Positions 4,352 through 36,075 of a stretch of DNA of 64,000 nucleotides are shown piece after piece (position 1 is the first letter of the stretch; each line of letters opens with the position of its first letter). Below the pieces are notes generated by a model. It ran no database searches. It saw only the letters and a list, made by a program, of their open reading frames with translations, and had not been told where the DNA came from. Location of the stretch: IMG/VR virus record IMGVR_UViG_3300042934_001067, positions 1 to 64,000 of that record; one strand, written 5' to 3'. A program made the position numbers and the translations under genes. The stretch is from a virus.

Positions 4352-6831
4352 CAGCTGCCTCCCGCCATCGGCAGGCCCAGGAGCTTCTTGTCACCCGTGA
4401 GCCGGGCCGGAGCGGCCACCTGGACCGAGGTGTTGAAGTAGCCGCCCTCACCGAACTTGAAGGAGTGCGTCACCGTCGTCACGTACGCCTGGAAGTTGAA
4501 GGCGGGGAACTGCAGCAGCATCCCCGGCCACACCTCCGGCATCCACGTCAGCGGGATCGACGCGCTGTACTGGTAGGCGAACTGGCGCAGGAACAGGAAG
4601 ATGGCGGAGAAGAACTGGGCCTTCGGCCCGACCAGCCCAGGCAGCTGCTGGTAGTCCGGCCGGGCGCCGAACCGCTGCTTGATCCAGTTCGCGTACTCCT
4701 CGGCCTCCTTCTCGGACATGTCCATCCCGAACAACGCCTTCCACACGCCGGGGAAGTCGATCGTCACCACGCCGCTGGTGAGGATGGCGGCCTGGGCCAG
4801 GTAGCTCTCTCCGACGGAACTCTGCACGGTGCCGGTCGCCGGATCGAAGAGGTTGCCGCCCAGCGGGGCCGTCACGGCGAACTGGTGCGTGACCATGTAG
4901 TCGTCCGACCAGGACACCTCGAAGTCCTGCACCTCGATCGGCTCGATCACCATCTTCGCGGCCGTGCCCCACATCCCGTAGTAGTCCGGGTACCAGGCGA
5001 TCAGGTCGCCGTTCGGGGCGGAGCAGAACGACCGCATCGTCGAGTTGAAAAGGTTCTTCAGGTACGGCAGCAGCGGCTGGTCGTTGAGGAGCGCGCGCGG
5101 GCCGACGAGGGCCTGCGCGATGAAGTAGTTCGGGTCGTTCTCTGCCGTCGAGATCGGCAGCCACGCGTTGTCGCCGAACATCTTGTCGAAGGGGTCGTCC
5201 GGGTTGTAGCCGGGTGCGTCCGCACCGGTGACCAGCTCGACGCCCGGGTCGGTCGGCTCCGGGATCTCGGTGCCGCCGTCGTTCTCGCCGACGATGACCC
5301 CGCCCGCGCCCGTGGTGTAGGCGATGCGCGGGAGGAAGCCGCCGTAGTCCCAGTACGAGGCGGGCAGCGTTGGCCCGACACCGACGTTGGGGTTCGCCCG
5401 CCTGCTGTGCGCGCCGATCGTGTCCTTGCCGTTGCCCAGGCTCATCTCGACGTGGTGGATCCCGCTCGGGCTGGAGCCCTTGAAGAGGAGCGCGCCCGGC
5501 GTCTCCAGAGCCGTCTTGACCGACACCTTCTTGCAGAAGCCGTACTGGGCGGAGGCGACGCGCGGAACGTTGTACAGCGCCCCCAGCCCGCGCAGGTACA
5601 TGGCCTGCACGAAGCTGGAGCAGTCCAGGCCGGGCGGCGGCTCGGCCTTCAGGACGCCGAGCTGGGTGCCGCCGTACTGCTGGGTGTACGGGATGTTCGG
5701 GTGCTTCTTGCAGAAGTTGACCGCGAGCTGCGCGAGGGCCAGGCCGCTGATGGTGCCCTGAGGCTTCGAGTTGAGCGCGTCGGACGAGCCGCCGCCCTTC
5801 TCCAGGTCGCGGACCATCGCGGTCGCGGGCTTCTCGTGCTTCTCATACGCGCGCGGGTAGGCGGAGCGCTGGACCTTCTGGCAGACCTCCCACATCTCCA
5901 GCCGGTCCCGGCCCTTGAGCTTGAAGAGCGTCTCGTAGAACTTCCCGGCCGCGTACTCAGGGTTCATGATCTGCTCGCGGGTGCCCCAGCCCTGGCTCGG
6001 GCGCTGCTGGAACAGGCCGACGGAGTCCCGGTCGCCGTGGGTGAGGTTGTTCAGGCCCGACTCCTGCATCGCCGTCATGATCGCGATGATGCAGTCCCGG
6101 GTGGACGCTCCCCGCTGCTTGCCGACGGAATAGATCGTCGCCGCATTCGCTTTCTGCTCGGAGCTGTTGAACCCGCCGTACGTCCCCGTCAGGGCGGACG
6201 CGTCGGCACCGCCCGCGCCCACGGACGCGGTGCCCAGCGATTCGAGGAGCGTCCGTGCGACCTCGTCGGCCTCGTCCAGCTCGGCGTTGATCTGCTTGGC
6301 CAGGGCCTCGATGACCGAGTACCAGTTCCCCGGGATCCGGGCGATGTGGACCTTCGACTCCGGCCAGCCGACGACCTTCTTCAGGATCGTCAGGACGACG
6401 TTGGTCATGCCGCCGTCAGAGATGGTGCTGTCCTTGGCCGCGTCCGAGAGAGCTTGGCGGACCATGGCCTGTGAGGCCTCGGCGTGGGAGTCCCAGAACC
6501 AGTACTGCAGACGCTTGAGGCTGCACGAGGCGGTTACGTGGACGACGCGCGGCCACGCGGTCACCAGCGGGACCTTGTTGAGGTAGCCGGTGAACACCTG
6601 GACCCACTTCAGGCGCTTCATCTGCACGCTGATGCGGTCGTTCGGGGTGAGCACCCCGTCGTACTTCCGCCGCGCGTTCTGCAGGGCGAACCGGAACGTG
6701 GAGACGCCGTCGGAGCGGCGGACCAGTTCGCCGTCGACCAGGTCATCGGAGACGTCGATGATCCCGTGCTTCTCCGTCGCGATGTAGACCTTCACGCCCG
6801 GCGCACTCACGAAGTTCGGAATCAGGACCAC
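4351..6831 (-). CDS. Baseplate hub protein with lysozyme-like and NlpC/P60 domains
   Basis: 826 residues from a GTG. The N-terminal ~200 residues are gp27/hub-like (VQVFTGYLNKVPLV, HVTASCSLKRLQYWFW). A transglycosylase-like segment (about 225-330) follows with AIMTAMQESGLNN (E257 as likely acid) and VGLFQQRPSQGWGT. An NlpC/P60 cysteine peptidase segment (about 365-500) has LDCSSF (C404), GIHHVEMSLGNG (H459/460) and AHSRRAN (H475). The C-terminus (560-826) returns to hub-like beta structure ending in TTVTHSFKFGEGGYFNTSVQ. It would punch through and cut peptidoglycan at infection. The start GTG lies next to a promoter-like element whose AAGGGG could itself be the SD. Confidence 0.88.
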   Translation of the reverse strand: MVLIPNFVSAPGVKVYIATEKHGIIDVSDDLVDGELVRRSDGVSTFRFALQNARRKYDGVLTPNDRISVQMKRLKWVQVFTGYLNKVPLVTAWPRVVHVTASCSLKRLQYWFWDSHAEASQAMVRQALSDAAKDSTISDGGMTNVVLTILKKVVGWPESKVHIARIPGNWYSVIEALAKQINAELDEADEVARTLLESLGTASVGAGGADASALTGTYGGFNSSEQKANAATIYSVGKQRGASTRDCIIAIMTAMQESGLNNLTHGDRDSVGLFQQRPSQGWGTREQIMNPEYAAGKFYETLFKLKGRDRLEMWEVCQKVQRSAYPRAYEKHEKPATAMVRDLEKGGGSSDALNSKPQGTISGLALAQLAVNFCKKHPNIPYTQQYGGTQLGVLKAEPPPGLDCSSFVQAMYLRGLGALYNVPRVASAQYGFCKKVSVKTALETPGALLFKGSSPSGIHHVEMSLGNGKDTIGAHSRRANPNVGVGPTLPASYWDYGGFLPRIAYTTGAGGVIVGENDGGTEIPEPTDPGVELVTGADAPGYNPDDPFDKMFGDNAWLPISTAENDPNYFIAQALVGPRALLNDQPLLPYLKNLFNSTMRSFCSAPNGDLIAWYPDYYGMWGTAAKMVIEPIEVQDFEVSWSDDYMVTHQFAVTAPLGGNLFDPATGTVQSSVGESYLAQAAILTSGVVTIDFPGVWKALFGMDMSEKEAEEYANWIKQRFGARPDYQQLPGLVGPKAQFFSAIFLFLRQFAYQYSASIPLTWMPEVWPGMLLQFPAFNFQAYVTTVTHSFKFGEGGYFNTSVQVAAPARLTGDKKLLGLPMAGGS

Positions 6832-6833
6832 CT

Positions 6834-6868
6834 CCGCCCCTTGGGGCGAATGACGGACAAGGAGACAC
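6834..6868 (-). promoter_or_regulatory. Late promoter-like element of the hub gene
   Basis: Minus strand GTGTCT, 20 bases, AAGGGGCGG. It abuts the GTG start of the hub gene, leaving almost no leader. Confidence 0.4.
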
Positions 6869-6933
6869 GAGCCCCGCTACGCTGGGGCTGCTTCCCCTCT
6901 GCTGACGGGGTGGTCGGCCATTCATCCGGCTGA

Positions 6934-6970
6934 GCGGCCCGCCCGTGCCGAAGATCGTAGGGCGGGCCGC
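6934..6970. terminator. Hairpin terminator in 6832-7123 spacer
   Basis: An 11-bp perfect stem GCGGCCCGCCC/GGGCGGGCCGC with a 15-base loop. One of three strong hairpins between the 216-residue baseplate gene and the hub gene; I see no gene in this 290-base spacer. Confidence 0.5.
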
Positions 6971-7012
6971 TATCATGAGAGCAGAGGCAGTTGCCGTGGG
7001 CGGCTGCAAGTG

Positions 7013-7049
7013 GGGCCAGGTGACCCGGGGCAGACCGGGAGCCTGGCCC
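7013..7049. terminator. Second hairpin in 6832-7123 spacer
   Basis: Outer stem GGGCCAGG/CCTGGCCC with an inner CCCGG/CCGGG stem. Terminator or part of a structured leader. Confidence 0.4.
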
Positions 7050-7079
7050 GGCGTCGTTTGGTGCGCGTACGATGGAGCT

Positions 7080-7120
7080 GGCCCTGGCGGCTGGATCTCA
7101 TCGAGGGTCGCGCCAGGGCC
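7080..7120 (-). terminator. Terminator after the 216-residue baseplate gene
   Basis: 10-bp stem GGCCCTGGCG/CGCCAGGGCC beginning four bases past the stop codon of the minus-strand gene. Confidence 0.55.
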
Positions 7121-7123
7121 TCT

Positions 7124-7774
7124 TCAATCCCCGTAGTCGTACCGCTCGCTCGGCAGGGTGCCCTCGTTCATCCCGAGGTTGGGCGGTGTCTGGCCCGGGT
7201 CCGAGCCGCCGTCGCTGCCGTCGATGATGTTCTGGTAGTTCCCGGACGGCACCGCGTTGCCGCCGAGCTGGGTGCCCATCGGCCAGAAGTACCTCATGTC
7301 GGGGTCCTCGGCCGCGACGAAGGAGCTGGCGCCCCACCGCTCGGTGTCCTGCGGCTCCCTGGTCGTCTCGAAGGTGATGGTGGGCGTCCAGAGCATCGCG
7401 CCGACCTGGTCGCCCCACTCGAAGCCCGTCAGCGGCACTCCCTCACGGTCGAAGTTCCGTGAGGGGATCAGGACCCGCATGTCGGGGAACCGCTCGCCTG
7501 CAGGCAGGCCGGGGTCCATGACGTAGTCGGCGTAGCGCTGCATCCAGTCGGCGAAGGCCTTCCGCTCGCTGTATCCCTTGAGCAGAACCCGCAGGTAGAA
7601 GCGGGAGGGGGTCGCGCGGTGAGGGTAGTAGGCGCGGGAGTTGCGGGCGCTGGAGGTGTCGGCGACCATCACCATGCCGTGGCCGACAGCGTCGACCCGG
7701 GCCCGGAAGACCTGGTTGGCGCCGCCCCGGGGGTAGGTGAGGGTGCAGTTCAGGCCCCTGCGTCCGTCTGCCAC
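7124..7774 (-). CDS. Baseplate/tail protein, unknown
   Basis: 216 residues from a GTG at 7774, preceded by the strong SD GAGGAGGAG; it overlaps the upstream 82-residue gene by 25 bases. Central sequence FYLRVLLKGYSERKAFADWM and a following MRVLIPSRNFDREGVPLTGF resemble a beta-rich tail component, and the last 40 residues are Gly/Ser/Asp-rich and probably disordered. Position between tape measure and hub is where T4-like phages encode hub or gp53-like proteins. No catalytic motif seen. Family not recognised. Confidence 0.75.
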   Translation of the reverse strand: MADGRRGLNCTLTYPRGGANQVFRARVDAVGHGMVMVADTSSARNSRAYYPHRATPSRFYLRVLLKGYSERKAFADWMQRYADYVMDPGLPAGERFPDMRVLIPSRNFDREGVPLTGFEWGDQVGAMLWTPTITFETTREPQDTERWGASSFVAAEDPDMRYFWPMGTQLGGNAVPSGNYQNIIDGSDGGSDPGQTPPNLGMNEGTLPSERYDYGD

Positions 7775-12843: not shown

Positions 12844-14373
12844 TCAGGCCGTCTCCTCCGTGACCTCCGTGGTCGTGTCGCCCGTCGACAGGTCGACCGC
12901 GAACTTGATCACGATGTAGTTCATCGGGATCGGCGGCTTGTACGAGAACGTCCCCTCGATCACCGACGGGTCCGCCGACAGCTGCCGCACCTGCACGTTG
13001 GCGTACGAGACGATCACCTCGTCTGACACCGCCTGCTCCAGCAGACCGATTAGCGACGACTTCACGCTGATCGTCATCTCCGTCGTGATCGGCTCACCGA
13101 TCAGCCCCGAGTTCTGCATCCCCGTCTGCAGCATCTGCAGCAGGGTGTCGCCGACCCGGGTCATCGAGATCTCCTGCGTGAGCACCGACGTCATCAGCGT
13201 CGACACCCCGTGCCGCACGATCAGCTGCGACGCCTGGTTGATCTCCGCCACCGCCACGCCGGACTTCGACAGGTTGTTCTTGAACGTCCTGGTCATGGCC
13301 TGCGCGATCGTCGCGGGCAGGCCCGTGAACGAGGTCAGCGACTGGTTCGTCAGCCCCCGCGCCACCGGGTTGCGCGCCAGGCGCCCCGCCATTGCGGCCG
13401 CCAGGTAGAACCCGTCGACCTCCGTGGAGGCGTTGACCGCCGAGTTGAACGCCAGCAGCCGGTTCGGATAGGCCAGCACCAGCCGCTTGCTGCCCTGCTG
13501 AATCGCCAGCTGGTCGTGCCCGGTCGTGTTGTCGTACGTCGTCGCCACACCCGTGAACGCGATCCGACCGTAGCCGTCCTCCGCCGCCGTCTCGCAGTGG
13601 TTCTTCACGTCGGCCAGCAGGTTCGCCACGTTCGTCGGCGTGTGCGCGTCGTAGGCGCCGTCCACCAGCAGCGGCACCAGCATCTGGGCCCGGTAGTCCG
13701 TCTCCAGCTTCTTGTACGCCGCCTGCAGCTGCGCCCGGTAGTCCCCGGCCGTCGGGTTCGTCGCCACACACAGTACGCTCGACGCGCCGTTCTCCAGCGC
13801 GATCTTCGCCGCCAGCGTCAGCGGCGAGGCCACCTGCGAGGCCGTCGGATCCGTCGGCGCGACTGACACCAGCGACGGACCGTACGCGGCCACCACCTGG
13901 TCGAAGTCCTCGAAAAGCGTCGGCTCGTAGTACGTCGCCGACGTGAACGCGTACGTGACCCGGACCTGATCGCCGTCCTTCAGCCCGTTCGGGCTGGGCT
14001 GCGTCAGGTCGCCCTCGTCCGCCGACAGCCGTCGGATCTTCGTGATCGCGGTAGGCGCACCACCGGACCCGGCCACGACCTCGAAGGTGTAGTCGGTGTT
14101 GTACTCCATCACCACGCCCGCCAGGGACGTCACCACCGGCGCAGCAATCGCAGGCGGACCGACGACCGCCGTGATGTAGACGCCCTTCTGCGTCAGCGCG
14201 GTGGCCGAGCCGGAGTAGACCGTCACCACCTCGGAGAACGTCTCGTAGCCCAGCGCGGGCCCGATCAGCGTCACGGTCGAGGTCGACACCGAACGCGGGG
14301 TGACCGTAGGAGTCGATTCGTCGGAGACGTAGACGCCAGGCGGCGTGTACGTCGCAGAAGAGATGTCGGGCAT
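12844..14373 (-). CDS. Tail sheath protein
   Basis: 509 residues from ATG 14373 (a GTG three codons earlier is also possible). The N-terminus YTPPGVYVSDESTPTVTPRS followed by STSTVTLIGPALGY is the sheath signature (xxxPGVYvxE). The C-terminal third has RTFKNNLSKSGVAVAEINQ and a final VIEGTFSYKPPIPMNYIVIK, as in sheath subunits that contract on infection. It establishes that the particle is a contractile-tailed virus. A promoter-like element and a ~300-base structured non-coding segment lie upstream. Confidence 0.93.
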   Translation of the reverse strand: MPDISSATYTPPGVYVSDESTPTVTPRSVSTSTVTLIGPALGYETFSEVVTVYSGSATALTQKGVYITAVVGPPAIAAPVVTSLAGVVMEYNTDYTFEVVAGSGGAPTAITKIRRLSADEGDLTQPSPNGLKDGDQVRVTYAFTSATYYEPTLFEDFDQVVAAYGPSLVSVAPTDPTASQVASPLTLAAKIALENGASSVLCVATNPTAGDYRAQLQAAYKKLETDYRAQMLVPLLVDGAYDAHTPTNVANLLADVKNHCETAAEDGYGRIAFTGVATTYDNTTGHDQLAIQQGSKRLVLAYPNRLLAFNSAVNASTEVDGFYLAAAMAGRLARNPVARGLTNQSLTSFTGLPATIAQAMTRTFKNNLSKSGVAVAEINQASQLIVRHGVSTLMTSVLTQEISMTRVGDTLLQMLQTGMQNSGLIGEPITTEMTISVKSSLIGLLEQAVSDEVIVSYANVQVRQLSADPSVIEGTFSYKPPIPMNYIVIKFAVDLSTGDTTTEVTEETA

Positions 14374-14401
14374 GCCACCCACCAGTCGCGTCGGTCATCT
14401 G

Positions 14402-14715: not shown

Positions 14716-14735
14716 CCCTCCAGGGGGCTCCATCA
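14716..14735 (-). terminator. Hairpin at the end of the tail-completion gene
   Basis: GGAGCCC/GGGCTCC stem that includes the stop codon of the 211-residue gene. Confidence 0.4.
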
Positions 14736-15368
14736 GTGCCAGACATCGAAGCCCTCGCCGCGCGCCTCGTTGTCCAGGGTCAGGTCGACCGTCGGCGTGA
14801 TCTGGATCTTCGACAGCGGCACGATGACGCCGGTCTCCGGGTCGGCCGCGAAGTCCCCGATCAGGTCCACGGCCAGCGTCCGCTCGTACAGCACCTCGTC
14901 CGTGCCCCACGGCGTCCCCGGCTCGGCCGACTCACCCGTCGACTCGATCTCGTCCGTGCGCAGCGTCAGGTCGATCAGGTCGTTGGCCTCCAAGTAGGCC
15001 CGGAACCGGCTGCGCGCTGTGTCGAACCCCGAGAACGCGACCGTCGCGATCAGCTCGTCGTAAACCCGGTCCCGCTCCACGCTCGTCAGCGCGACGATGA
15101 CGAACTCCCAGGACCCCTCGAACTTGAAGCGCGTGTACGGATGCGTCCGGCCGCCGGTCACCGGGTCGACGTCCTCGGTGTGCTTCACACCGGCCTGCTT
15201 CAGCGGCCCCGTGTCTGAGTAGCGCACCCACACCTGCGGCAGCCGGATCTGCTTGACCGGGTACTCCAGCGAGCACCGCAGCCCCCGGAACTCTGCTACC
15301 GGGTACTGCTCGTCGAACACCGCCTGCAGCGCCTCGACCGCGAGCGCCTTGACCTTGGTGATGTACAC
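14733..15368 (-). CDS. Neck/tail completion-like protein
   Basis: 211 residues from a GTG with SD GGAGGAGGGG. The start YITKVKALAVEALQAVFDEQ, middle TRFKFEGSWEFVIVALTSVE and end recall small tail-terminator proteins that cap the tube and sheath, with a helix followed by mixed beta strands. It is the last gene before the sheath, where tail-completion proteins are encoded. Family assignment is by position and overall pattern only. Confidence 0.65.
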   Translation of the reverse strand: MYITKVKALAVEALQAVFDEQYPVAEFRGLRCSLEYPVKQIRLPQVWVRYSDTGPLKQAGVKHTEDVDPVTGGRTHPYTRFKFEGSWEFVIVALTSVERDRVYDELIATVAFSGFDTARSRFRAYLEANDLIDLTLRTDEIESTGESAEPGTPWGTDEVLYERTLAVDLIGDFAADPETGVIVPLSKIQITPTVDLTLDNEARGEGFDVWH

Positions 15369-15426: not shown

Positions 15427-16134
15427 TCAGTAGTGGTCGTCCTCGTCGTGGTGACCGAGGTCCTCTTCGCCGATCACGGTGAAACCGTGCTTGGACCGGA
15501 CGTCGTCGTCGTTGTTGCCCCGGTGGTTTCCGTTGCCGTCATACTGCGGGTCCTTCTCGACCGGCCCGTTGGGATGGACCTCGTAGACGCGAGCCTGGCC
15601 GCCGTGGGTCATCGCGGCCTGGTCGGCGTAGTGCTCCGCGCTCGACCGGCTGGTGGCGTAGGCGTAGCCAGGCTCGTGGACGCCGAGGTTGTTGCCGAAG
15701 TTTCCCTTGGTCCCGTGGTTGGGGTGCACCTGCTCCAGGTCCTTGACTGTGGTGCCGTGCCAGTACCTCGGCGCGGGTTCGCCCTCGGGGTCGGATGCCT
15801 GGTCGTGGAGATGTACCGGCACCGGTCCGTGGCCCATGTTCTGCAACGCCTTCAGCAGGTGCGCATGGTGCAGGTGGTCCTCTGGATGTGTCTCCGAGCC
15901 GTCGGCGTGGTGGTAGATGTTCTCGCCGTGGTCGGTGATGTTCAGCCCGAGCTGGCCGTGCCGCTCCGGACTGTAGCCGTGCTGGCTGATCGAGTCGCTT
16001 AGCCTGCGGACGTGCTTGTCGTCCAGACGGTCGTACGCATGTCCCACATCCAGTTCCGAGGGGTCGATGTGCTCCTCGGAATCGATCGGCGCCCACTTAC
16101 CCAACTTGTTGATCTCCGACCAGACCAGCGTCAT
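15427..16134 (-). CDS. ParB-nuclease-like plus Arr-like ADP-ribosyltransferase protein
   Basis: 235 residues. The C-terminal half aligns by eye with rifampin ADP-ribosyltransferase (Arr): RYWHGTTVKDL (H126) for the NAD-binding His, GYAYATS (Y157/Y159) for the Tyr, ARVYEVHPNGPVEKDP (D195) for the GPVEDDP loop, then FTVIGEE. The first ~110 residues resemble a ParB/sulfiredoxin-like fold (HVRRLSDSISQHGYSP, then HLLKALQNMGHGPVPVHLHD). Small Arr enzymes are ~140 residues, so this is a two-domain form. It overlaps the next upstream gene (ATGA) in a structural operon, so it may be packaged and injected. Substrate unknown; rifamycin resistance is only one option. Confidence 0.7.
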   Translation of the reverse strand: MTLVWSEINKLGKWAPIDSEEHIDPSELDVGHAYDRLDDKHVRRLSDSISQHGYSPERHGQLGLNITDHGENIYHHADGSETHPEDHLHHAHLLKALQNMGHGPVPVHLHDQASDPEGEPAPRYWHGTTVKDLEQVHPNHGTKGNFGNNLGVHEPGYAYATSRSSAEHYADQAAMTHGGQARVYEVHPNGPVEKDPQYDGNGNHRGNNDDDVRSKHGFTVIGEEDLGHHDEDDHY

Positions 16135-16856
16135 CTGAACTCCTCACCGTGCAAGCGTACGTAGTTTCTCCACCCCTTGTCCGCCACGTAGACCCTCCCG
16201 GCCAGCAGGCCGTGCTTCTGCGCCGCCAGGGTCATGGACGTGTTCAGGAAGCTGCGCGGCTTCAGGCCGGGGTGCCGCCACCAGACACCGACGTTCCCCG
16301 GGTGGATGGCGCCAGGGCGCTTCCCAGGCCGCGTCCACGGCTGCTTCGCCTCACGCCACCCGATCCGGCCCGGAGCGCCCGGGTAGTGTGCCGGAGTGTC
16401 CGAGACGACGAGCTTCAGCCCGGTCTTCGGATCCCGTCGGTAGACCTTCTTCCGCTGCCCGATCTTCGCCGCGCGCCGGAAGATCAGCACCTGCACCTTG
16501 CCGGACTCCGTGACCCGGGTCTTCGCCTTCGGGTTGTCCCGCCGCTCCTGGCCCGTGGGGTCGTCGATCCACATCGGGATGGTCTTGCCAGCCAGGTTCT
16601 TCATGGTGAAGGCCTTCGTGCCGTGGTCCTGGTACCAGACCACCTGCGTCGCCCACGAGATCCCGAAGTAGCCCTTGCCGTAGAGCGGCTGCATTCCGCG
16701 CGCCGCCGCGCCGCTCATCTTCGGCATCCGTCGCCGGGCCTGCCGTACAGCCTCCCGGGCGGCGGCCTGGGCCCGCTTCGGGGACAGACCCTTCTCGATC
16801 ATGATCATCCGGTCGGGGGTGGCGACCAGGTGGACCTCGGGGACCTCGGCCTGCAC
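16131..16856 (-). CDS. Minor head-tail/neck protein, unknown
   Basis: 241 residues, very basic. Segments SPKRAQAAAREAVRQARRRM, then GYFGISWATQVVWYQDHGTK and MWIDDPTGQERRDNPKAKTR and a C-terminal HPGLKPRSFLNTSMTLAAQK recall gp10/neck-type completion proteins (HK97 gp10 group). It shares an ATGA overlap with the Arr-like gene. A promoter-like element precedes it. No catalytic motif. Confidence 0.65.
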   Translation of the reverse strand: MQAEVPEVHLVATPDRMIMIEKGLSPKRAQAAAREAVRQARRRMPKMSGAAARGMQPLYGKGYFGISWATQVVWYQDHGTKAFTMKNLAGKTIPMWIDDPTGQERRDNPKAKTRVTESGKVQVLIFRRAAKIGQRKKVYRRDPKTGLKLVVSDTPAHYPGAPGRIGWREAKQPWTRPGKRPGAIHPGNVGVWWRHPGLKPRSFLNTSMTLAAQKHGLLAGRVYVADKGWRNYVRLHGEEFR

Positions 16857-16909: not shown

Positions 16910-17635
16910 CTACGGCGCCACCCGACCGTTCATGTTGAAGGCGCCCCACGTGAGCGGCATCTGCTCCGCCCACAACTCCTCCATCTTCTCGCCGACCATC
17001 TCAATTTCCCGCTGCGGGAAGGAGGGCACCTTCGCCAGCTCGTGCTGAGTGCGCAGACCCAGGAAGTGCATCAGCGAGCGGGCGTTGCAGGTGGCGTACA
17101 TCGACGAGTAGATGTTCAGCGGCAGAGCCGCCCGCGCGACCTCCCGAGCCACCCCGGCGTCCAGGAGCGTCTTGTACATCCAGTAGCACTCGTTGGAGTT
17201 CTCCATGAGCAGGTCGCGGACTTCGGTCGCCTGCTCCTTCGTTCCCTCGACGAAGGTGTAGGCGCCAGGCTTGCCCTGCTGGACCAGCTTGCGGTCCGGG
17301 CCGGGGATGTAGAACACGGGGTCCAGCTCCTTGTACCGGCCGGACTCCTCGTTGTAGGACCAGCCGACGCGGTGCCGCATGAACTCGCGGAAGACGAAGA
17401 TCGGAGCGCTGATGAAGAAGGTCATCGAGGTGTGCTCGAAGGGGCTGCCATGACGGTCCCTCATCAGGTAGCCGATGAGGCCCGCATCCTTCGCGGTGGC
17501 CTCATTGAAGCGGGTCTCGCCGCCCAAGGTGGAAACCCGGGCGGCGAAGGTGACGTCGGTGTCCTCGGCGGCGTGCTTGACCAGCTCGACGGTGACGTCC
17601 GAGCGGTAGGTGGGCTGTACGAGTTCCTCGGGCAT
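16910..17635 (-). CDS. thyX: Flavin-dependent thymidylate synthase ThyX
   Basis: 241 residues. The ThyX signature RHRVGWSYNEESGRY (RHR-x3-S-x-NE-x-S-x-RY type) is intact, preceded by HGSPFEHTSMTFFISAPIFV and followed by AREVARAALPLNIYSSMYAT and NARSLMHFLGLR. It makes dTMP from dUMP with FAD, NADPH and methylene-tetrahydrofolate. The enzyme is full length with all conserved blocks. It lies inside a head-neck gene run, unlike most nucleotide genes, and pairs with the dCTP deaminase at 48427 to feed dTTP synthesis during replication. Confidence 0.95.
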   Translation of the reverse strand: MPEELVQPTYRSDVTVELVKHAAEDTDVTFAARVSTLGGETRFNEATAKDAGLIGYLMRDRHGSPFEHTSMTFFISAPIFVFREFMRHRVGWSYNEESGRYKELDPVFYIPGPDRKLVQQGKPGAYTFVEGTKEQATEVRDLLMENSNECYWMYKTLLDAGVAREVARAALPLNIYSSMYATCNARSLMHFLGLRTQHELAKVPSFPQREIEMVGEKMEELWAEQMPLTWGAFNMNGRVAP

Positions 17636-26204: not shown

Positions 26205-29200
26205 TCAGCTCCAGGCGGGCTTTTCGACAGCAGGTGCCTTGGAGTAGTTCGAGTTGATCTCGCCCGGGGTGAGGAGCTGGGCGCGCTGGCAGCTGGGGCA
26301 GACGTCGCCGGAGACGATGCCGTCGCTGGCGCCGCCTGGGTTGCCCATGTCCTGGGTCTGGGGCGGGGTGGCGTCGGCGCCGAAGCCGCAGCTCGGGCAG
26401 AACAGGTCGGGGAGGCCGTCGCCGGGCTGGCCCTGCATGGGGGCGGGGGCCATGCCGTAGGGGGAGTCGGCGTCGTCCTGGTCGAGCTTCTCGTCGGGGT
26501 TGCCCGGCTCGTCCGGCCGGTAGGGCATGTCGGGGCCGGGGGTGAACGGGTCGCCGGTACGGTCCTTGCCCCAGCCGGGCAGCTCGCGGGGGCCGACCTG
26601 GCCTCCCTGCTCCGGGTCGGCCATGTCCTGCTGCTGGACGGGGACGTTGCCCTCGGGGTCGATCTCGTTGGGCTGGATCATGCCGTCGCCGTTGCGGTCG
26701 GACACGGCGGGGCCGTCGGTCTGGGTGCCGTCGAGGGCCTGGTCGCCGTACGGGGACGGTGGGAGGCCGTTGTCGTCGAGCTGGTCGGGGTCGATCATCT
26801 GCTGCGACGGGTCCTGCGGGGCGTTCGGGTCCTGCGCCGGGTCGCCGGGCTGGCCGTCCTGCGGCATGGCGGTGCCGTCCCGGTCGACGCGCTGGAGTTC
26901 GCCGTTGTTGTCGACGAGGGCGGGGTCGACGATCTGCTTGCGCAGGTCGTTGGTCTTGGCCTTGTCGAGGTCGGGGTCTCGGAACTGCTCGGGCGGGGAG
27001 ATGAAGCCGCAGACCTGGCAGGCGAGTCCGTCGAAGGTGTCCATGTCGCCGCAGACGGGGCAGTTGGGCTCGCGCAGGGTGTCGACGTCGGCCGGGGCCT
27101 TGATCTCCCCGTATGCCACGGCGCTGATCGTGCCGTCGGCGTTGATGGACGCGGCGTCGGCGAGGCGGGCGACGTGGGAGTTGTTGTCGTCCTTCAGGTG
27201 GGGGGTGTGCTCGCCTGCGAGGTCCCTCCACTGGGTGCGCTGGTTGCGCTGTACGGTCTGGCGGCCCTTGCCGCCCGGCGACTGCTCGTCCTCGGCGGCG
27301 TTCAGGCGCTGGCGGGTCAGCCAGGTGACGGCCTGGACCTCGTGGGGCGGCACGGTGCGGCCTTCCCGGTCGGAGATGACGGCGGCGGCAGTGCGGAAGT
27401 GCTGGGCGGCGTGCTCGTAGTAGTGCCGGTTGCCGGAGGGAAAGCCCCTGGAGGCGTCGGCGTTCAGGCGGCGCCCGGCCGCGACGGACAGTGCGTGCCG
27501 GTCGATGACGACCTTGTCGGAGTGCTCGGGGGGCTTCCCGGCCTGGACGTCCTCGTCGGACTGCGGCTTGTAGCCTGCGTGTTCGATCAGGTGGGCGAAG
27601 TCGGCGGTCTTGGGGCCCTTGAGGACCGTCTGGTGGTCCTCTCCGTTGAGGATGCGCTGGGCGGCGCTGGCGTGGCTGCCCATGACCATCAGGCCCTCGC
27701 CCTTGCCGACGGCCTTCTTCTGGAGGAAGCTCCGGGCCGCGTTGTGCTGGTTGGCCCACCAGTTCTGCTGGGGGCTGTAGGCGGACAGGACACCGGCGCC
27801 CTTGTGCGCGGCCTCCTTGTCGTCCTTGATGTCGGGGTTCAGCTTGGCGATTGCCTTGGCGACGTGGTGCGCGTCCGGGTACCAGCGGGCTCCCTGGGCC
27901 TTCTCCTCCGGCGTGGCCTGGTTCCAGTGGCTCACGATGTGCTCGTGGGACAGCCCGGCCTCTTTGAACCACGGGTGGTCGCCCGGGTTCTCGTACTGCG
28001 GCTTGGCCGCTTCGGCCTGCAGGGCAGCCGCGCGCGGGGGCTGCGCGGTGCTGGGCGTCGGGTACTGAGGCGTCCACATGGCCGCCTCGTCCTGGCGGTG
28101 GGCCTCCTGGTTGAAGGTGCGGCCGTCGTGCGGGACGGGCTCGTGGCCGGTGACGGTGCCGCCCGCGTGCTGCCAGGCCGCGCTGTGGCCGTTGCGGACC
28201 AGCTCCAGGTCCTGGTTGCAGGTACGGCAGAACGGGCTGCCCACGGGCAGGCTGGCGGTCGTGCGGCTGCCGGTTGACTCGATCTTGTCCACTACGGACT
28301 GCGGGATCTTCTCCGGGGTGTCGTAGGAGCCGGAGCGGGCCCGGTGGGTGGTGACGTACCAGCCGTCGTCGTCCTGCTTCAGGCCGACGCCCTCGAAGCG
28401 GGGGTCCTTGCCCGCCGTCTTGTCCTCGTGCTCGTACGACGTTGAGGCCGTCGCCTGGCGGGCGTTGAGGCTGGGCTTGAGCGGCGTGTAGGGCTTGGTC
28501 TTGGTGACGGCGTCCTGGCGGCGCTGGCGGTCGGCGGGGGCGCCGTCCTTGGGGACGGCGGGCGCGGCCGGGGCCGGGTGCTGTGCGGGCTCGGCGAGCT
28601 TGGGGGCGGAGGTGTCCTTGCCGTCCTCGTCGTCGTCCGTCTCCGGGTCGTCGGAGTCGAAGTCGGCCGGGTTGAACTCGGCGGTCTTCGCGGCGGCCAC
28701 GTTCAGGAGGTCGCTGGCGCTGGGGGTGAGGTCGACGGTCACCCTCTGCTGGGCGGCGGCCTTGCCGATGCCGGAGGCGTCCACGCCGAGGAAGTGGGCA
28801 GTCGGGTCGGCCGGGGGTTCGACGAGGACGCTGTTCTCGAAGAAGGACAGGCCGTAGCAGGTCTCGCGGACCAGCTCGCCGATCTTCTTCCCGGAGGCGG
28901 TGCGCCGGTAGATGCGCTTGCCCTTGAGGGCGGGGATGTGGGCGCAGTACTCGGCGGGGGTGCGGGCCTCGTTGCCGCAGGCGGAGCAGACGGAGCGCTC
29001 GACGTCGCAGCCCATGGAGGTCCGGTCGACTTCGCCTGCGAGGATGGCCTTGGCCAGCTTCGGGAAGCGGACGGCGTCGATCTCCATGAGGACCTCGGCC
29101 CAGGTGTCCGGGGTGCCGTCGGGGTTCTTGTCCTGGTGGAGCGCGGCGTCGATGATGACGCCGCGCGCGCGCCGGTGGTTGTCGTTGACGTGGTTCACGA

Positions 29201-29423
29201 AGACGGGCTTGCCGATGAAGGTCCGGTAGGCGGCGGCGATCTCGTCGGCGGGGAATTCGTCGTGGTTGTCGTTCGTGCGTGAACTGATGGCCCTGCTGCG
29301 TACGTACAGGTATCCGGGGCGCGCGTCGTACTGGAAGACCGCGCGGTGGGCCGCCTTGGAGAAGCGCTGCTGCTGGTCGCCGAGCGACGCGGCGATGATC
29401 TGGGCCGTGGCGAACTTCAGCAC
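26205..29423 (-). CDS. Prohead protease-like polyvalent protein (1072 residues)
   Basis: The first ~200 residues look like a herpes/T4-type prohead protease: VFVNHVNDNHRRARGVIIDA (His) and AILAGEVDRTSMGCDV (Ser), then a CSACG...CAH zinc knuckle and ETCYGLSFFENSVLVEPPAD. Such proteases are usually 200-300 residues. The extra ~800 residues hold an all-helical domain (AYSPQQNWWANQHNAARSF, then DKVVIDRHALSVAAGRRLN and HEVQAVTWLTRQRLNAAE), two zinc ribbons (CPVCGDMDTFDGLACQVCG; FCPSCGFGAD...VCPSCQR) and acidic linkers. Probably cleaved during assembly, with the remainder packaged. GTG start with SD AGGAGG. Confidence 0.75.
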   Translation of the reverse strand: MLKFATAQIIAASLGDQQQRFSKAAHRAVFQYDARPGYLYVRSRAISSRTNDNHDEFPADEIAAAYRTFIGKPVFVNHVNDNHRRARGVIIDAALHQDKNPDGTPDTWAEVLMEIDAVRFPKLAKAILAGEVDRTSMGCDVERSVCSACGNEARTPAEYCAHIPALKGKRIYRRTASGKKIGELVRETCYGLSFFENSVLVEPPADPTAHFLGVDASGIGKAAAQQRVTVDLTPSASDLLNVAAAKTAEFNPADFDSDDPETDDDEDGKDTSAPKLAEPAQHPAPAAPAVPKDGAPADRQRRQDAVTKTKPYTPLKPSLNARQATASTSYEHEDKTAGKDPRFEGVGLKQDDDGWYVTTHRARSGSYDTPEKIPQSVVDKIESTGSRTTASLPVGSPFCRTCNQDLELVRNGHSAAWQHAGGTVTGHEPVPHDGRTFNQEAHRQDEAAMWTPQYPTPSTAQPPRAAALQAEAAKPQYENPGDHPWFKEAGLSHEHIVSHWNQATPEEKAQGARWYPDAHHVAKAIAKLNPDIKDDKEAAHKGAGVLSAYSPQQNWWANQHNAARSFLQKKAVGKGEGLMVMGSHASAAQRILNGEDHQTVLKGPKTADFAHLIEHAGYKPQSDEDVQAGKPPEHSDKVVIDRHALSVAAGRRLNADASRGFPSGNRHYYEHAAQHFRTAAAVISDREGRTVPPHEVQAVTWLTRQRLNAAEDEQSPGGKGRQTVQRNQRTQWRDLAGEHTPHLKDDNNSHVARLADAASINADGTISAVAYGEIKAPADVDTLREPNCPVCGDMDTFDGLACQVCGFISPPEQFRDPDLDKAKTNDLRKQIVDPALVDNNGELQRVDRDGTAMPQDGQPGDPAQDPNAPQDPSQQMIDPDQLDDNGLPPSPYGDQALDGTQTDGPAVSDRNGDGMIQPNEIDPEGNVPVQQQDMADPEQGGQVGPRELPGWGKDRTGDPFTPGPDMPYRPDEPGNPDEKLDQDDADSPYGMAPAPMQGQPGDGLPDLFCPSCGFGADATPPQTQDMGNPGGASDGIVSGDVCPSCQRAQLLTPGEINSNYSKAPAVEKPAWS

Positions 29424-33470: not shown

Positions 33471-33896
33471 TCAGACGACCAGCATACGCAGCGCCATCTG
33501 CATCTCGCCCGGCGTCAGCTCACCGCCCGCCGCGATCTTCTCCCGCAACTGCGCCTGCTCCCGCTCCTCGTCCGTCATCCCGTAGTACGGGTCCGGCCGG
33601 TGCTCGGCCAGCACCCGGCGCACCGCCGCCAGGTCGACCGACGACGGCGTGACGTAGAAGATGACCGGGTCCTGCGCGCTCACCGGCCCCGGCAGGCCGT
33701 CCTCGTCGATGGGAATGACAGCAGCCACCTGGACGGACGGACCGAGCGCCTCGGTCACCTCCACCTGCAGCTGGCCGACCGCGACCTCGCGGTTCCAGGT
33801 GAAACGGTGGCTGTCCCCCCGGAAGGGGTCCACCGGGTCGCCGCTGCCGTTCTCCTCCGGCGTCGGCTCCACGTCGTGCTTGTTCAGGCCAGCCAT
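33471..33896 (-). CDS. Acidic accessory protein, unknown
   Basis: 141 residues, overlapping the 706-residue gene by 13 bases. Beta-rich middle (HRFTWNREVAVGQLQVEVTE, SAQDPVIFYVTPSSVDLAAV), then a helical C-terminus (DPYYGMTDEEREQAQLREKI, LTPGEMQMALRML). No signal peptide or enzyme motif. May be a partner or inhibitor of the preceding ADP-ribosyltransferase-like protein; inferred only from coupling. Confidence 0.6.
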   Translation of the reverse strand: MAGLNKHDVEPTPEENGSGDPVDPFRGDSHRFTWNREVAVGQLQVEVTEALGPSVQVAAVIPIDEDGLPGPVSAQDPVIFYVTPSSVDLAAVRRVLAEHRPDPYYGMTDEEREQAQLREKIAAGGELTPGEMQMALRMLVV

Positions 33897-36004
33897 GTGA
33901 TGTCGTCCTCCTGCCCTGCCAGAACCTGCTCCAGGTCGGCGTAGTGAGTCCCCTTGATGTCCAGACGGTCCAGGTTGGCCGCCCGCACCCCCTCACCCTC
34001 ATTGATCAGCGCCTGCTGCTCCGCGAGGGTGAAGTCCTTCAGCGCCTGCCTGCGCAGGCCCGCCGTCATGTACGTCGGCGACAGATCCGCGTCCGCCGAC
34101 GGCACCTGCACCCCGTCCGTGGACGGCAAGGCGGCCTCCGGCTCGTCGTGCAGCAGCGCCTCCGTCCCGCCGGGCTCGAACAGCGAGTGCTCCGCCGCTG
34201 CCGTGTACGACTGCAGCGGCAGCTGCCGGTTCCAGCCCACCGGGTCGGCGCCCGCGAGGGGCCCGGCCGACGCGGGGTTCTCCCACGGCCGCTTCGGCGA
34301 CGTCGACCCCGGCGCCTTCGGCAGCTGGTACGAGGTCCCCGACGGCTCACCGAACGGCGCGTTGGCGTTCGCGGTGTGCTGCAGCGGCTTCTCGAAGTCG
34401 TGCCGCGTCCACTCGTGCTTGTGCGGCTCTTTCCACGACACACCGGCGATGTGCACCGGCTCACCCTCGGAGACCGGCACCTCCGCGTCTTCGTGGTGGT
34501 CGTAGCCGATGACCTCACGGTCGCGCAGGGTGTCGTCGTCGGTTTCGATCGACGCCCGGTCTGGGGTCTTGGCGTGCAGGATCACGTGCGTACCCGTGCG
34601 ACCCGAATCGCTGCTCGTGGGCGTGGGGTGGGAGATGTGTGCGTAGTGGTTGGCCTGCTCCGGGCTGCCCGACCAGTGCATGCCGAGGCCCCTGTCGCCG
34701 CCGGTGACCTCCTTTACCAGGGCGTGCGCACGCTCGGCCGTCGGCTTGGCGGGGTCGTGGACGTGGGAGTGGACATCGTCCGGCAGCGCAACGTTCATAC
34801 CCCGGTGCACGCCGTTGAGGTGCGGGTAGACGCGGTCCCAGTCCGTGCGGTGGGTGTCGTCCTCTTCCTCGTCGTCCCCCAAGGAGTCCCAGGATGCGTT
34901 GACCGTGCGGAGCGCCAGCACGACCTCGGCGCGGTCCTCACCGGCGGCCACGGCCGCGCGAGCGACGATGGAGAGCGGGGAGCTGGGGCTGGTCTGTCGA
35001 GCGGCGGCGGTCGCCGGTGCGAGCCGGTGCTGGTCGGCGTCGATGTCGTAGCGGACGACGACCTTGCGCGGCACCCAGGAGGGCTTGTGCTCGTCCACGT
35101 GGACGTCGCGGCCGAACATGCCCCGGGACTGGGCCTCGTACTGCAGGGCCAGCGCGTGTGAGCACATGCGCCCGGCGAACCGGCTGAAGTCGTCGCTGGC
35201 GCCCCAGTGGTAGGCGCCCCACTTGCAGCCGCAGGACCAGGCGTGTGCGGCCATCTTGCCGGGCATGCGCTGCAGACCGGTCTCGTAGACCTCGTGGTCG
35301 CCCTTGACCTCGGCGTAGACCAGGCCGTCGGAGGCCATGGTGACGCGCAGGCGGCCCTCGGTGCGGATCCGCTTCGCCTTGGCGACGACGTCGCGCCAGG
35401 CGGCCGTGACGTGGAAGCGGAAGTCAGCGTTGGTCGCGGCCGTCACGACCAGGTCGGAGAACAGCTTCGAGGCGTTCTTGGCCCACGGCGGCGCGTCGTC
35501 GTCGCTGTCCGAGTCGTCGTCGCTGTCGTCGGAGTCTGTGGAGTCGTCCCCGTCGTCATGAGAGTCGTCGTCCTCGTCATGCGAGTCGTCAGGGGCGTCG
35601 TCTTGCGAGTCGTCCTCGTCGTCGTTGTCGGCGAAGGGGTTGTCCTTCTTCGCCGCGAACACCTGCTGCATCGCCGGGTCGGGCCGGTCGACGAGGACCT
35701 GGGCCAGCTCGGGGTAGTCGGCCGCCGCCGTCTGCTCCATGGCCTCGGTGGTGATCGGCGCCGGGCGGAGCTGGGACGCCGTGTACCGGCCGCCGCCCAT
35801 GCCCCGGTCCAGGACGACGTGGTACTCCTCGGAGCCCGGGAAGGGGCCGTCCTCGACGTGGCTGACCACGCCGGGCAGGCCGTCCGTGGTGTGCACACGC
35901 TGCTCGGGCTTGTACTCCCAGTAGTCCTCGGAGCGCACGGCCAGCTTCTGCGCGCCCAGTGTCTGGTGCTCCAGGCGCTCGACGCGCTCAAACCTGCCGC
36001 TCAC
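33884..36004 (-). CDS. SWIM zinc finger plus ADP-ribosyltransferase-like protein
   Basis: 706 residues from GTG 36004 (SD GGGAGG). In order: small beta domain (GLPGVVSHVEDGPFPGSEEY), an acidic linker rich in Asp/Ser (about 125-175), a beta domain, a SWIM finger HAWSCGCKWG...MCSHALALQ (CxC and CxH, ~245-275), and a region ~390-520 resembling toxin ADP-ribosyltransferases: NGVHRGMNVALPDD (Arg), GLGMHWSGSPEQANHYAHI (Ser), HHEDAEVPVSEGEPVHIAGV (Glu-rich strand). A helical tail follows. The multi-domain build suggests a polyvalent protein injected with DNA. Confidence 0.7.
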   Translation of the reverse strand: MSGRFERVERLEHQTLGAQKLAVRSEDYWEYKPEQRVHTTDGLPGVVSHVEDGPFPGSEEYHVVLDRGMGGGRYTASQLRPAPITTEAMEQTAAADYPELAQVLVDRPDPAMQQVFAAKKDNPFADNDDEDDSQDDAPDDSHDEDDDSHDDGDDSTDSDDSDDDSDSDDDAPPWAKNASKLFSDLVVTAATNADFRFHVTAAWRDVVAKAKRIRTEGRLRVTMASDGLVYAEVKGDHEVYETGLQRMPGKMAAHAWSCGCKWGAYHWGASDDFSRFAGRMCSHALALQYEAQSRGMFGRDVHVDEHKPSWVPRKVVVRYDIDADQHRLAPATAAARQTSPSSPLSIVARAAVAAGEDRAEVVLALRTVNASWDSLGDDEEEDDTHRTDWDRVYPHLNGVHRGMNVALPDDVHSHVHDPAKPTAERAHALVKEVTGGDRGLGMHWSGSPEQANHYAHISHPTPTSSDSGRTGTHVILHAKTPDRASIETDDDTLRDREVIGYDHHEDAEVPVSEGEPVHIAGVSWKEPHKHEWTRHDFEKPLQHTANANAPFGEPSGTSYQLPKAPGSTSPKRPWENPASAGPLAGADPVGWNRQLPLQSYTAAAEHSLFEPGGTEALLHDEPEAALPSTDGVQVPSADADLSPTYMTAGLRRQALKDFTLAEQQALINEGEGVRAANLDRLDIKGTHYADLEQVLAGQEDDITWLA

Positions 36005-36032
36005 CGGCGCCTCCCTCAACGACCGTGCCTTC

Positions 36033-36068
36033 TCAGCCCTTGGGGGTGACCGCCGGTGCGGCGACAGC
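36033..36068 (-). promoter_or_regulatory. Late promoter-like element
   Basis: Minus strand CTGTCG, 20 bases, AAGGGCTGA; 28 bases before the GTG of the SWIM/ART gene. Confidence 0.4.
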
Positions 36069-36075
36069 AAGGGGG

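What the first reader, a model, noticed from the sequence alone, without database searches (positions are those of the whole stretch)
15427..16134. Arr-like ADP-ribosyltransferase with a ParB-nuclease-like N-terminal domain in the neck operon
Key Arr residues (His, Tyr, Asp in WHGT, GYAYATS, GPVEKDP) are present and the protein carries an extra N-terminal domain. Small Arr enzymes inactivate rifamycins; here the context is structural, so the target may be a host factor (RNA polymerase or DNA). Together with the SWIM protein the phage has two such candidates.
Basis: partly seen in the sequence, partly recalled or inferred. Interest (0 to 1): 0.7.

Follow-up and report, generated by a model that had tools for sequence, protein, structure and literature searches.

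The report
Phage Arr-like ADP-ribosyltransferase with ParB-fold domain
A virus of Streptomyces bacteria carries, among the genes for its neck and tail, a small two-part enzyme that should attach ADP-ribose to something; it resembles the rifampicin-inactivating enzyme Arr but lacks Arr's drug-binding part, so it is more likely a host-takeover protein than a drug-resistance gene.

Summary
Window 15427-16134 (-) encodes a 235-residue protein, translationally coupled (ATGA) to the upstream neck gene in a myophage distantly related to Ceeclamvirinae. Residues 124-223 pass Pfam's cut-off for Arr-ms; a 12-homologue AlphaFold model (pLDDT 82) matches Arr best. H126, Y159 and D195 align with catalytic H19, Y49 and D84 of Arr and are invariant. 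Residues 17-115 have the ParB/sulfiredoxin fold but no invariant arginine, so "nuclease" is unsupported.

New here: (1) Arr's rifampicin pocket is missing: the TDKK(F/L)P loop is replaced and the C-terminal helix absent; NCBIfam rifampin-Arr scores 27.6 against a cut-off of 130 (a chromosomal Arr: 159.8). Rifamycin inactivation is unlikely. (2) The gene sits in a variable cargo island. All 12 sampled ART copies and 15 of 17 ParB-like island proteins share an N-terminal M(S/T)L(L/V)W-type leader, disordered in the model. (3) In distant phages the same ART is a module of giant "polyvalent" proteins, once together with the SWIM/ART modules of this phage's other candidate.

Best reading: a miniature polyvalent effector, probably packaged and injected; catalysis likely, target unknown, packaging inferred.

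The parts
15427..16134 (-). the gene: 235-aa ParB/Srx-fold + Arr-like ART protein
16120..16134 (-). codons of the N-terminal leader MTLVW (residues 1-5), shared by the island's cargo proteins; disordered in the model (pLDDT < 50 for residues 1-11)
15790..16086 (-). N-terminal ParB/sulfiredoxin-fold domain (residues 17-115); His-rich, no invariant Arg
15463..15774 (-). Arr-like ADP-ribosyltransferase domain (residues 121-224); H126 at 15757-15759, Y159 at 15658-15660, D195 at 15550-15552
15430..15462 (-). acidic/His-rich variable C-terminal tail, in place of Arr's C-terminal helix that carries rifampicin contacts
16131..16856 (-). upstream neck gene (phrog_2819 homologue); its TGA overlaps the ART's ATG (ATGA)
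14733..15368 (-). downstream neck/tail-completion gene (phrog_2748 homologue)
12844..14382 (-). tail sheath (phrog_2839)
16910..17635 (-). ThyX, the other non-structural gene inserted in the same island
33884..36070 (-).

Best explanation
It is a miniature 'polyvalent' effector of a Streptomyces myophage: a short N-terminal leader, a ParB/sulfiredoxin-fold binding domain and a catalytically competent Arr-clade ADP-ribosyltransferase. It is made late with the neck and tail proteins, probably packaged in the virion through the leader (as T4's capsid targeting sequence does for internal proteins), and delivered with the DNA. There it transfers ADP-ribose from NAD+ to a host component that is not rifampicin, to favour take-over or blunt defence. 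Shown by sequence or model: gene, fold, catalytic triad, loss of the rifampicin pocket, leader, cargo island, position in the structural operon. Inferred: NAD+ use, late expression, packaging, injection. Unknown: the target.
For: Arr fold and triad: Arr E 2.9e-5; Arr Z 9.4 over 101 residues, above Tpt1 at 7.7. Rifampicin pocket missing: alignment with chromosomal Streptomyces Arr against the contact residues in PMC6092378; NCBIfam rifampin_ARR 27.6 bits, cut-off 130, control Arr 159.8. Cargo island: Myrna and RedWattleHog have neither ThyX nor ART at this place; about 20 distinct relatives carry varied sets of ART and ParB-like genes between the phrog_2806 and phrog_2748 homologues. Leader in 12 of 12 ART and 15 of 17 ParB-like proteins (the script's strict pattern counts 14; L067 was cut two codons early), and in 1 of 172 predicted ORFs of this phage; low confidence in the model. 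Same ART as a module of 588-1910-aa proteins with 2H phosphoesterase, GNAT, ParB-like (DGHHR) and SWIM modules. Precedents: ARTs near morphogenesis genes predicted to be head-packaged (PMC9503650); ART and ParB/Srx domains in polyvalent proteins (PMC5512222); T4 Alt and the capsid targeting sequence (PMC9026906).
Against: No virion proteomics, no activity data. The leader could be a remnant of duplication of an ancestral ParB-like gene rather than a targeting signal. Neck genes are presumably made late, so the enzyme could act late in the producing cell without packaging. The N-terminal domain's sequence link to ParB is marginal once the leader is removed (hhalign score 16.7, best of 100 column shuffles 16.5).
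Confidence: 0.5

Rival explanations
1. A resistance gene: the phage carries an Arr that ADP-ribosylates rifamycins or similar antibiotics and so protects its lysogenised host from soil competitors, as proposed for the Arr-family ARTs of Gordonia and Microbacterium phages.
For: Pfam Arr-ms match over cut-off; best fold match is Arr with bound rifampicin; literature proposal for other actinophages (PMC9503650); host group Streptomyces is rich in antibiotics.
Against: The rifampicin contacts are gone: no C-terminal helix (M126, L130, L133, A139, I141), the TDKK(F/L)P loop with K91 replaced; far under the NCBIfam cut-off; position in a structural operon rather than a lysogeny module; same domain is a module of polyvalent proteins. 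About 6% of sampled Streptomyces genomes show a match to this family's profile, mostly a normal 139-aa chromosomal Arr.
Confidence: 0.1
2. A late-acting or lysogenic conflict enzyme that is not packaged: made with the neck proteins, it modifies host or rival-phage components in the producing cell (superinfection exclusion, anti-defence like AcrIF11).
For: Same catalytic and island evidence; AcrIF11 shows that a phage ART can act in the cell as a highly specific anti-defence enzyme (PMC12421852); relatives lie in 150-157 kb contigs of Streptomyces genome assemblies, so carriage in the host is possible.
Against: The shared disordered leader, and linkage to polyvalent proteins, fit delivery better. 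No partner antitoxin or defence gene seen in the window's island.
Confidence: 0.25
3. A structural or assembly protein of the neck that has reused a dead ART fold.
For: Its place between neck genes; acidic, His-rich composition.
Against: H, Y and D invariant in 12 homologues; gene absent from the same place in Myrna and RedWattleHog and from several close relatives, so not needed for assembly; found on either side of the phrog_2819 gene.
Confidence: 0.08
4. A nucleic-acid-modifying enzyme related to Tpt1/KptA: the ParB-fold domain binds DNA or RNA and the ART caps or marks ends.
For: Tpt1/KptA structures are the next ART fold matches (Z 7.7, rmsd 1.9 over 72 residues); a ParB-like domain could bind nucleic acid.
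Against: The triad is Arr's H-Y-D; the sequence profile finds Arr, not Tpt1; ParB signature arginine absent.
Confidence: 0.07

Closest known systems
Rifampin ADP-ribosyltransferase Arr (Arr-ms, 2HW2; Pfam PF12120; NCBIfam NF033144)
   Same: ART fold; HGT motif and catalytic H-Y-D; loop -N-F-; RS...V.GE core at the end of the domain
   Different: No rifampicin-binding loop or C-terminal helix; extra ParB-fold domain and leader; in a phage neck operon; 27.6 bits against an equivalog cut-off of 130
Polyvalent proteins of phages (Iyer et al. 2017, PMC5512222)
   Same: ART and ParB/Srx modules in one protein; same ART found inside giant relatives (L085, L086, L087, L089); structural-gene context
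   Different: Only two domains and 235 aa; its ParB-fold domain lacks the superfamily's conserved arginine
Arr-family ARTs of Gordonia/Microbacterium phages (PMC9503650)
   Same: Arr-like ART in actinobacteriophages
   Different: Those were read as antibiotic-modifying; here the pocket is absent and the gene is in the neck island
T4 Alt and T4 internal proteins with the capsid targeting sequence (PMC9026906)
   Same: Phage ART with structural genes; short shared N-terminal leader on otherwise different proteins
   Different: Alt is of the R-S-E clade; the leader sequence is unrelated; packaging is not shown here
AcrIF11 (PMC12421852)
   Same: Phage-encoded ART as specific anti-defence enzyme
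   Different: Not described from a phage structural operon (as far as I read); no homology tested here

Membership tests
ADP-ribosyltransferase superfamily, Arr-like (PF12120) | Profile match above the curated cut-off | tested here: met
   30.1 bits, cut-off 25; the homologues scanned all match at E < 1, of those with printed scores only L055 (21.6 bits) lies below the cut-off
ADP-ribosyltransferase superfamily, Arr-like (PF12120) | Catalytic His, Tyr, Asp (H19/Y49/D84 of Arr-ms) | tested here: met
   H126/Y159/D195 aligned, invariant in 12
ADP-ribosyltransferase superfamily, Arr-like (PF12120) | Arr fold | tested here: met
   Foldseek E 2.9e-5 to 9iaf, VIA Z 9.4, rmsd 5.0, 101 aligned
ADP-ribosyltransferase superfamily, Arr-like (PF12120) | NAD+-dependent transferase activity | not testable with these tools
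   needs purified protein
Rifamycin-inactivating Arr (NCBIfam NF033144 equivalog) | Score over the equivalog cut-off (130 bits) | tested here: not met
   27.6 bits; control chromosomal Streptomyces Arr 159.8
Rifamycin-inactivating Arr (NCBIfam NF033144 equivalog) | Rifampicin pocket: C-terminal helix (M126, L130, L133), A139/I141, K91 loop | tested here: not met
   alignment against residues listed in PMC6092378
ParB/sulfiredoxin superfamily | Fold | tested here: met
   beta-alpha-alpha-beta-beta-alpha-beta in residues 17-111; Foldseek prob 1.00 to Srx; Srx Z 8.7, Noc/ParB Z 7.4-7.0
ParB/sulfiredoxin superfamily | Conserved active-site arginine (PMC5512222) | tested here: not met
   no invariant Arg in residues 13-116 of 12 homologues; H92 near the expected place is invariant
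ParB/sulfiredoxin superfamily | Sequence similarity to ParB-like proteins of the same phages without the leader | tested here: inconclusive
   hhalign score 16.7, best of 100 shuffles 16.5
Polyvalent proteins | Two or more effector-type domains in one polypeptide encoded with structural genes | tested here: met
   larger relatives
Polyvalent proteins | Packaged in the virion and injected | not testable with these tools
   needs proteomics

The most novel reading that the evidence does not exclude
Streptomyces myophages of this group have a modular cargo-loading system in the neck region: a new N-terminal targeting leader (M-S/T-L-L/V-W) loads ParB-fold and Arr-like effectors into the virion. 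The Arr-like effectors form a new ART subfamily that lacks the rifamycin pocket and modifies an unknown host target.
Probability: 0.3. Interest if true: 0.68.

Novelty: new variant of a known kind. Interest (0 to 1): 0.48.

Why it matters
Pfam-based annotation would call such genes 'rifampin ADP-ribosyltransferase' and count them as phage-borne drug resistance; the missing pocket says otherwise. If packaged, the leader would be a second natural system, besides T4's capsid targeting sequence, for loading proteins into a phage head, now in phages of antibiotic-producing actinobacteria, and it would point to many unknown injected effectors that can be listed by their first five residues.

Tried and rejected
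tblastn in annotated phages and plasmids: no match even at E 1. PHROGs: only weak unknown families. PADLOC: no match. Pfam SWIM model in the own genome: no hit. A Tpt1/KptA-like enzyme as first choice was rejected after the second model put Arr clearly first among ARTs. A possible processing motif [RK]TA[ASTGF] is strongest in three large proteins of this phage (26205, 104474, 106414), but I chose it after looking, it is absent from the window's ART itself, and over the whole predicted proteome it is hardly enriched (16 observed, 12.2 expected), so I make no claim. A search for papers on Streptomyces phage-plasmids of this kind gave nothing relevant.

Full report
What is there. Window 15427-16134 (minus strand) encodes 235 residues. 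Its ATG overlaps the TGA of the preceding gene (ATGA, 16131-16134) and is preceded by GAGGAG. The genome is a 156,276-base virus record whose sheath matches those of Bxz1/Myrna-type actinobacterial myophages at about 30% identity and whose neck genes fall in the matching PHROGs. Two relatives lie in whole contigs of about 157 and 153 kb in assemblies of Streptomyces sp. MH60 and A0642, so Streptomyces is the likely host.

Is it an ART? Pfam Arr-ms matches residues 124-223 over its cut-off. A profile of four homologues finds Arr-ms (2HW2, E 0.0026) and aligns H126, Y159 and D195 with H19, Y49 and D84, the residues whose mutation abolishes Arr activity (PMC3138739, numbered one lower there; PMC6092378). 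All three are invariant in 12 homologues that are down to 53% identical to the window protein. An AlphaFold model from these 12 has mean pLDDT 82.4, pTM 0.76; the first, from seven, had 69.7. Foldseek puts Arr first (E 2.9e-5), and VIA-align gives Z 9.4 over 101 residues. Well-known ART toxins appear only far below, as expected from the shared ART fold.

Is it a rifampicin enzyme? Probably not. In Arr the drug sits between residues of a loop (V87, K91, L92, P96) and of the C-terminal helix and what follows it (M126, L130, L133, A139, I141) (PMC6092378). Aligned with seven chromosomal Streptomyces Arr proteins, the phage domain has GNxRGN-like sequence for TDKK(F/L)PGN, and after the last core strand an acidic, His-rich tail of variable length instead of the helix. 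The structural alignment also stops at Arr residue 120-121. NCBIfam's rifampin-Arr model gives 27.6 bits (cut-off 130) against 159.8 for a chromosomal Arr used as control. The NAD+ half of the site is kept, the drug half is not.

The N-terminal domain. Residues 17-115 fold as ParB/sulfiredoxin (Srx Z 8.7, Noc and ParB about 7). Z under 8 can be unspecific, but Foldseek probability is 1.00 for Srx and the topology is right. Its sequence link to ParB-like proteins rests mainly on the leader: with the leader removed the profile comparison barely beats shuffles. No arginine is invariant in the domain, whereas the superfamily's active site has one (PMC5512222). I therefore read it as a binding domain, not as a nuclease. 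The invariant H59, H92, H102, H108 and D111 might bind a metal; that is a guess.

The island. Myrna and RedWattleHog have no gene at this place and no ThyX there. Among 29 IMG/VR loci found with the upstream neck protein, about 20 of them distinct, the stretch between the phrog_2806 and phrog_2748 homologues varies: ThyX, ART, one to three ParB-like (mostly DGHHR) proteins, on either side of the phrog_2819 gene. The ART domain's similarity does not follow that of the neck: L012 and L067 (neck protein about 61% identical) have ART domains 78-79% identical to the window's, L008 and L010 (neck about 87%) only 60-62%, which suggests exchange of the cargo gene between lineages.

The leader. Twelve of 12 ART proteins and 15 of 17 ParB-like island proteins begin M/V-(S/T/A)-(L/T)-(L/V)-(W/Y) (the script's strict pattern counts 14 of 17, L067 having been cut two codons early). 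In the window's phage only the ART has it, of 172 predicted ORFs. Residues 1-11 have pLDDT under 50, so the conservation is not explained by the fold. In two fused multi-domain ParB-like proteins (L064, L066) the leader stands only at the N-terminus, while inner junctions keep 'EAMAW'-like sequence and lack LLW. This fits an N-terminal signal. T4's capsid targeting sequence, ten residues, does this for its internal proteins (PMC9026906). Packaging here is an inference.

Link to polyvalent proteins. A scan with the 12-row alignment finds the ART domain inside giant proteins: L087 (1,295 aa, 46% identical over residues 124-223, with the same GNNDDDVRS stretch, two more Arr-like domains and a DGHHR motif), L085 (1,910 aa), L086 and L089 with 2H phosphoesterase and other modules. 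In L085 the Arr-like domain is in one polypeptide with stretches 34-40% identical to the SWIM/ART protein of this window (33884-36070).

Known or new. Arr-family ARTs in actinobacteriophages, ARTs beside morphogenesis genes and ART + ParB/Srx polyvalent proteins have been described (PMC9503650; PMC5512222). What I did not find described is this two-domain form, its missing drug pocket, the cargo island and the shared leader; my literature search was limited to an open-access library. Hence 'new variant of a known kind'.

Noticed in passing
genome record G000 68.8-69.6 kb, L004:1420-2208 (-), outside the window: A second Arr-like protein (262 aa, Pfam Arr-ms 29.6 bits, partial profile); its D84 loop is shortened in the alignment, so activity is doubtful.
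   Followed up: partly
window 33884-36070 (-); L085:4651-10380: SWIM-type CxC...CSH segment plus an R-S-E-like ART in one 728-aa protein; a 1,910-aa relative fuses these modules with an Arr-like domain and a DGHHR motif.
   Followed up: partly
G000 104474-106417 and 106414-108639, L047:3474-5417 and 5414-7639 (-): Two polyvalent proteins (ParB-like, RelE-like, 2H phosphoesterase; GNAT, ParB-like, nucleotidyltransferase-like) beside what looks like the large terminase, both with an N-terminal SAT(A/S)FFR motif that recurs in relatives L021 and near L089.
   Followed up: partly
window 26205-29423 (-): 1,072-aa protein with DUF7178 in the middle and a start that looks like a prohead protease; three of the phage's 16 [RK]TA[ASTGF] motifs are in it.
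   Followed up: no
window 16910-17635 (-): ThyX gene inserted in the neck operon of these Streptomyces phages, absent from Myrna and RedWattleHog at this place.
   Followed up: partly
L009:6578-7273, L012:4841-5998, L064:3881-5236, L066:2913-4694, L072:4367-7124: A diverse family of ParB-like (DGHHR) proteins, mostly with the MSLLW-type leader, often duplicated or fused, in the same island; mostly without Pfam assignment over cut-off.
   Followed up: partly
VIA-align row 50, PDB 9k3a chain B residues 1422-1610: An ART-like match (Z 3.8) in the cyanophage A4 pre-ejectosome, a virion component; weak, but it would fit ARTs carried in virions.
   Followed up: no
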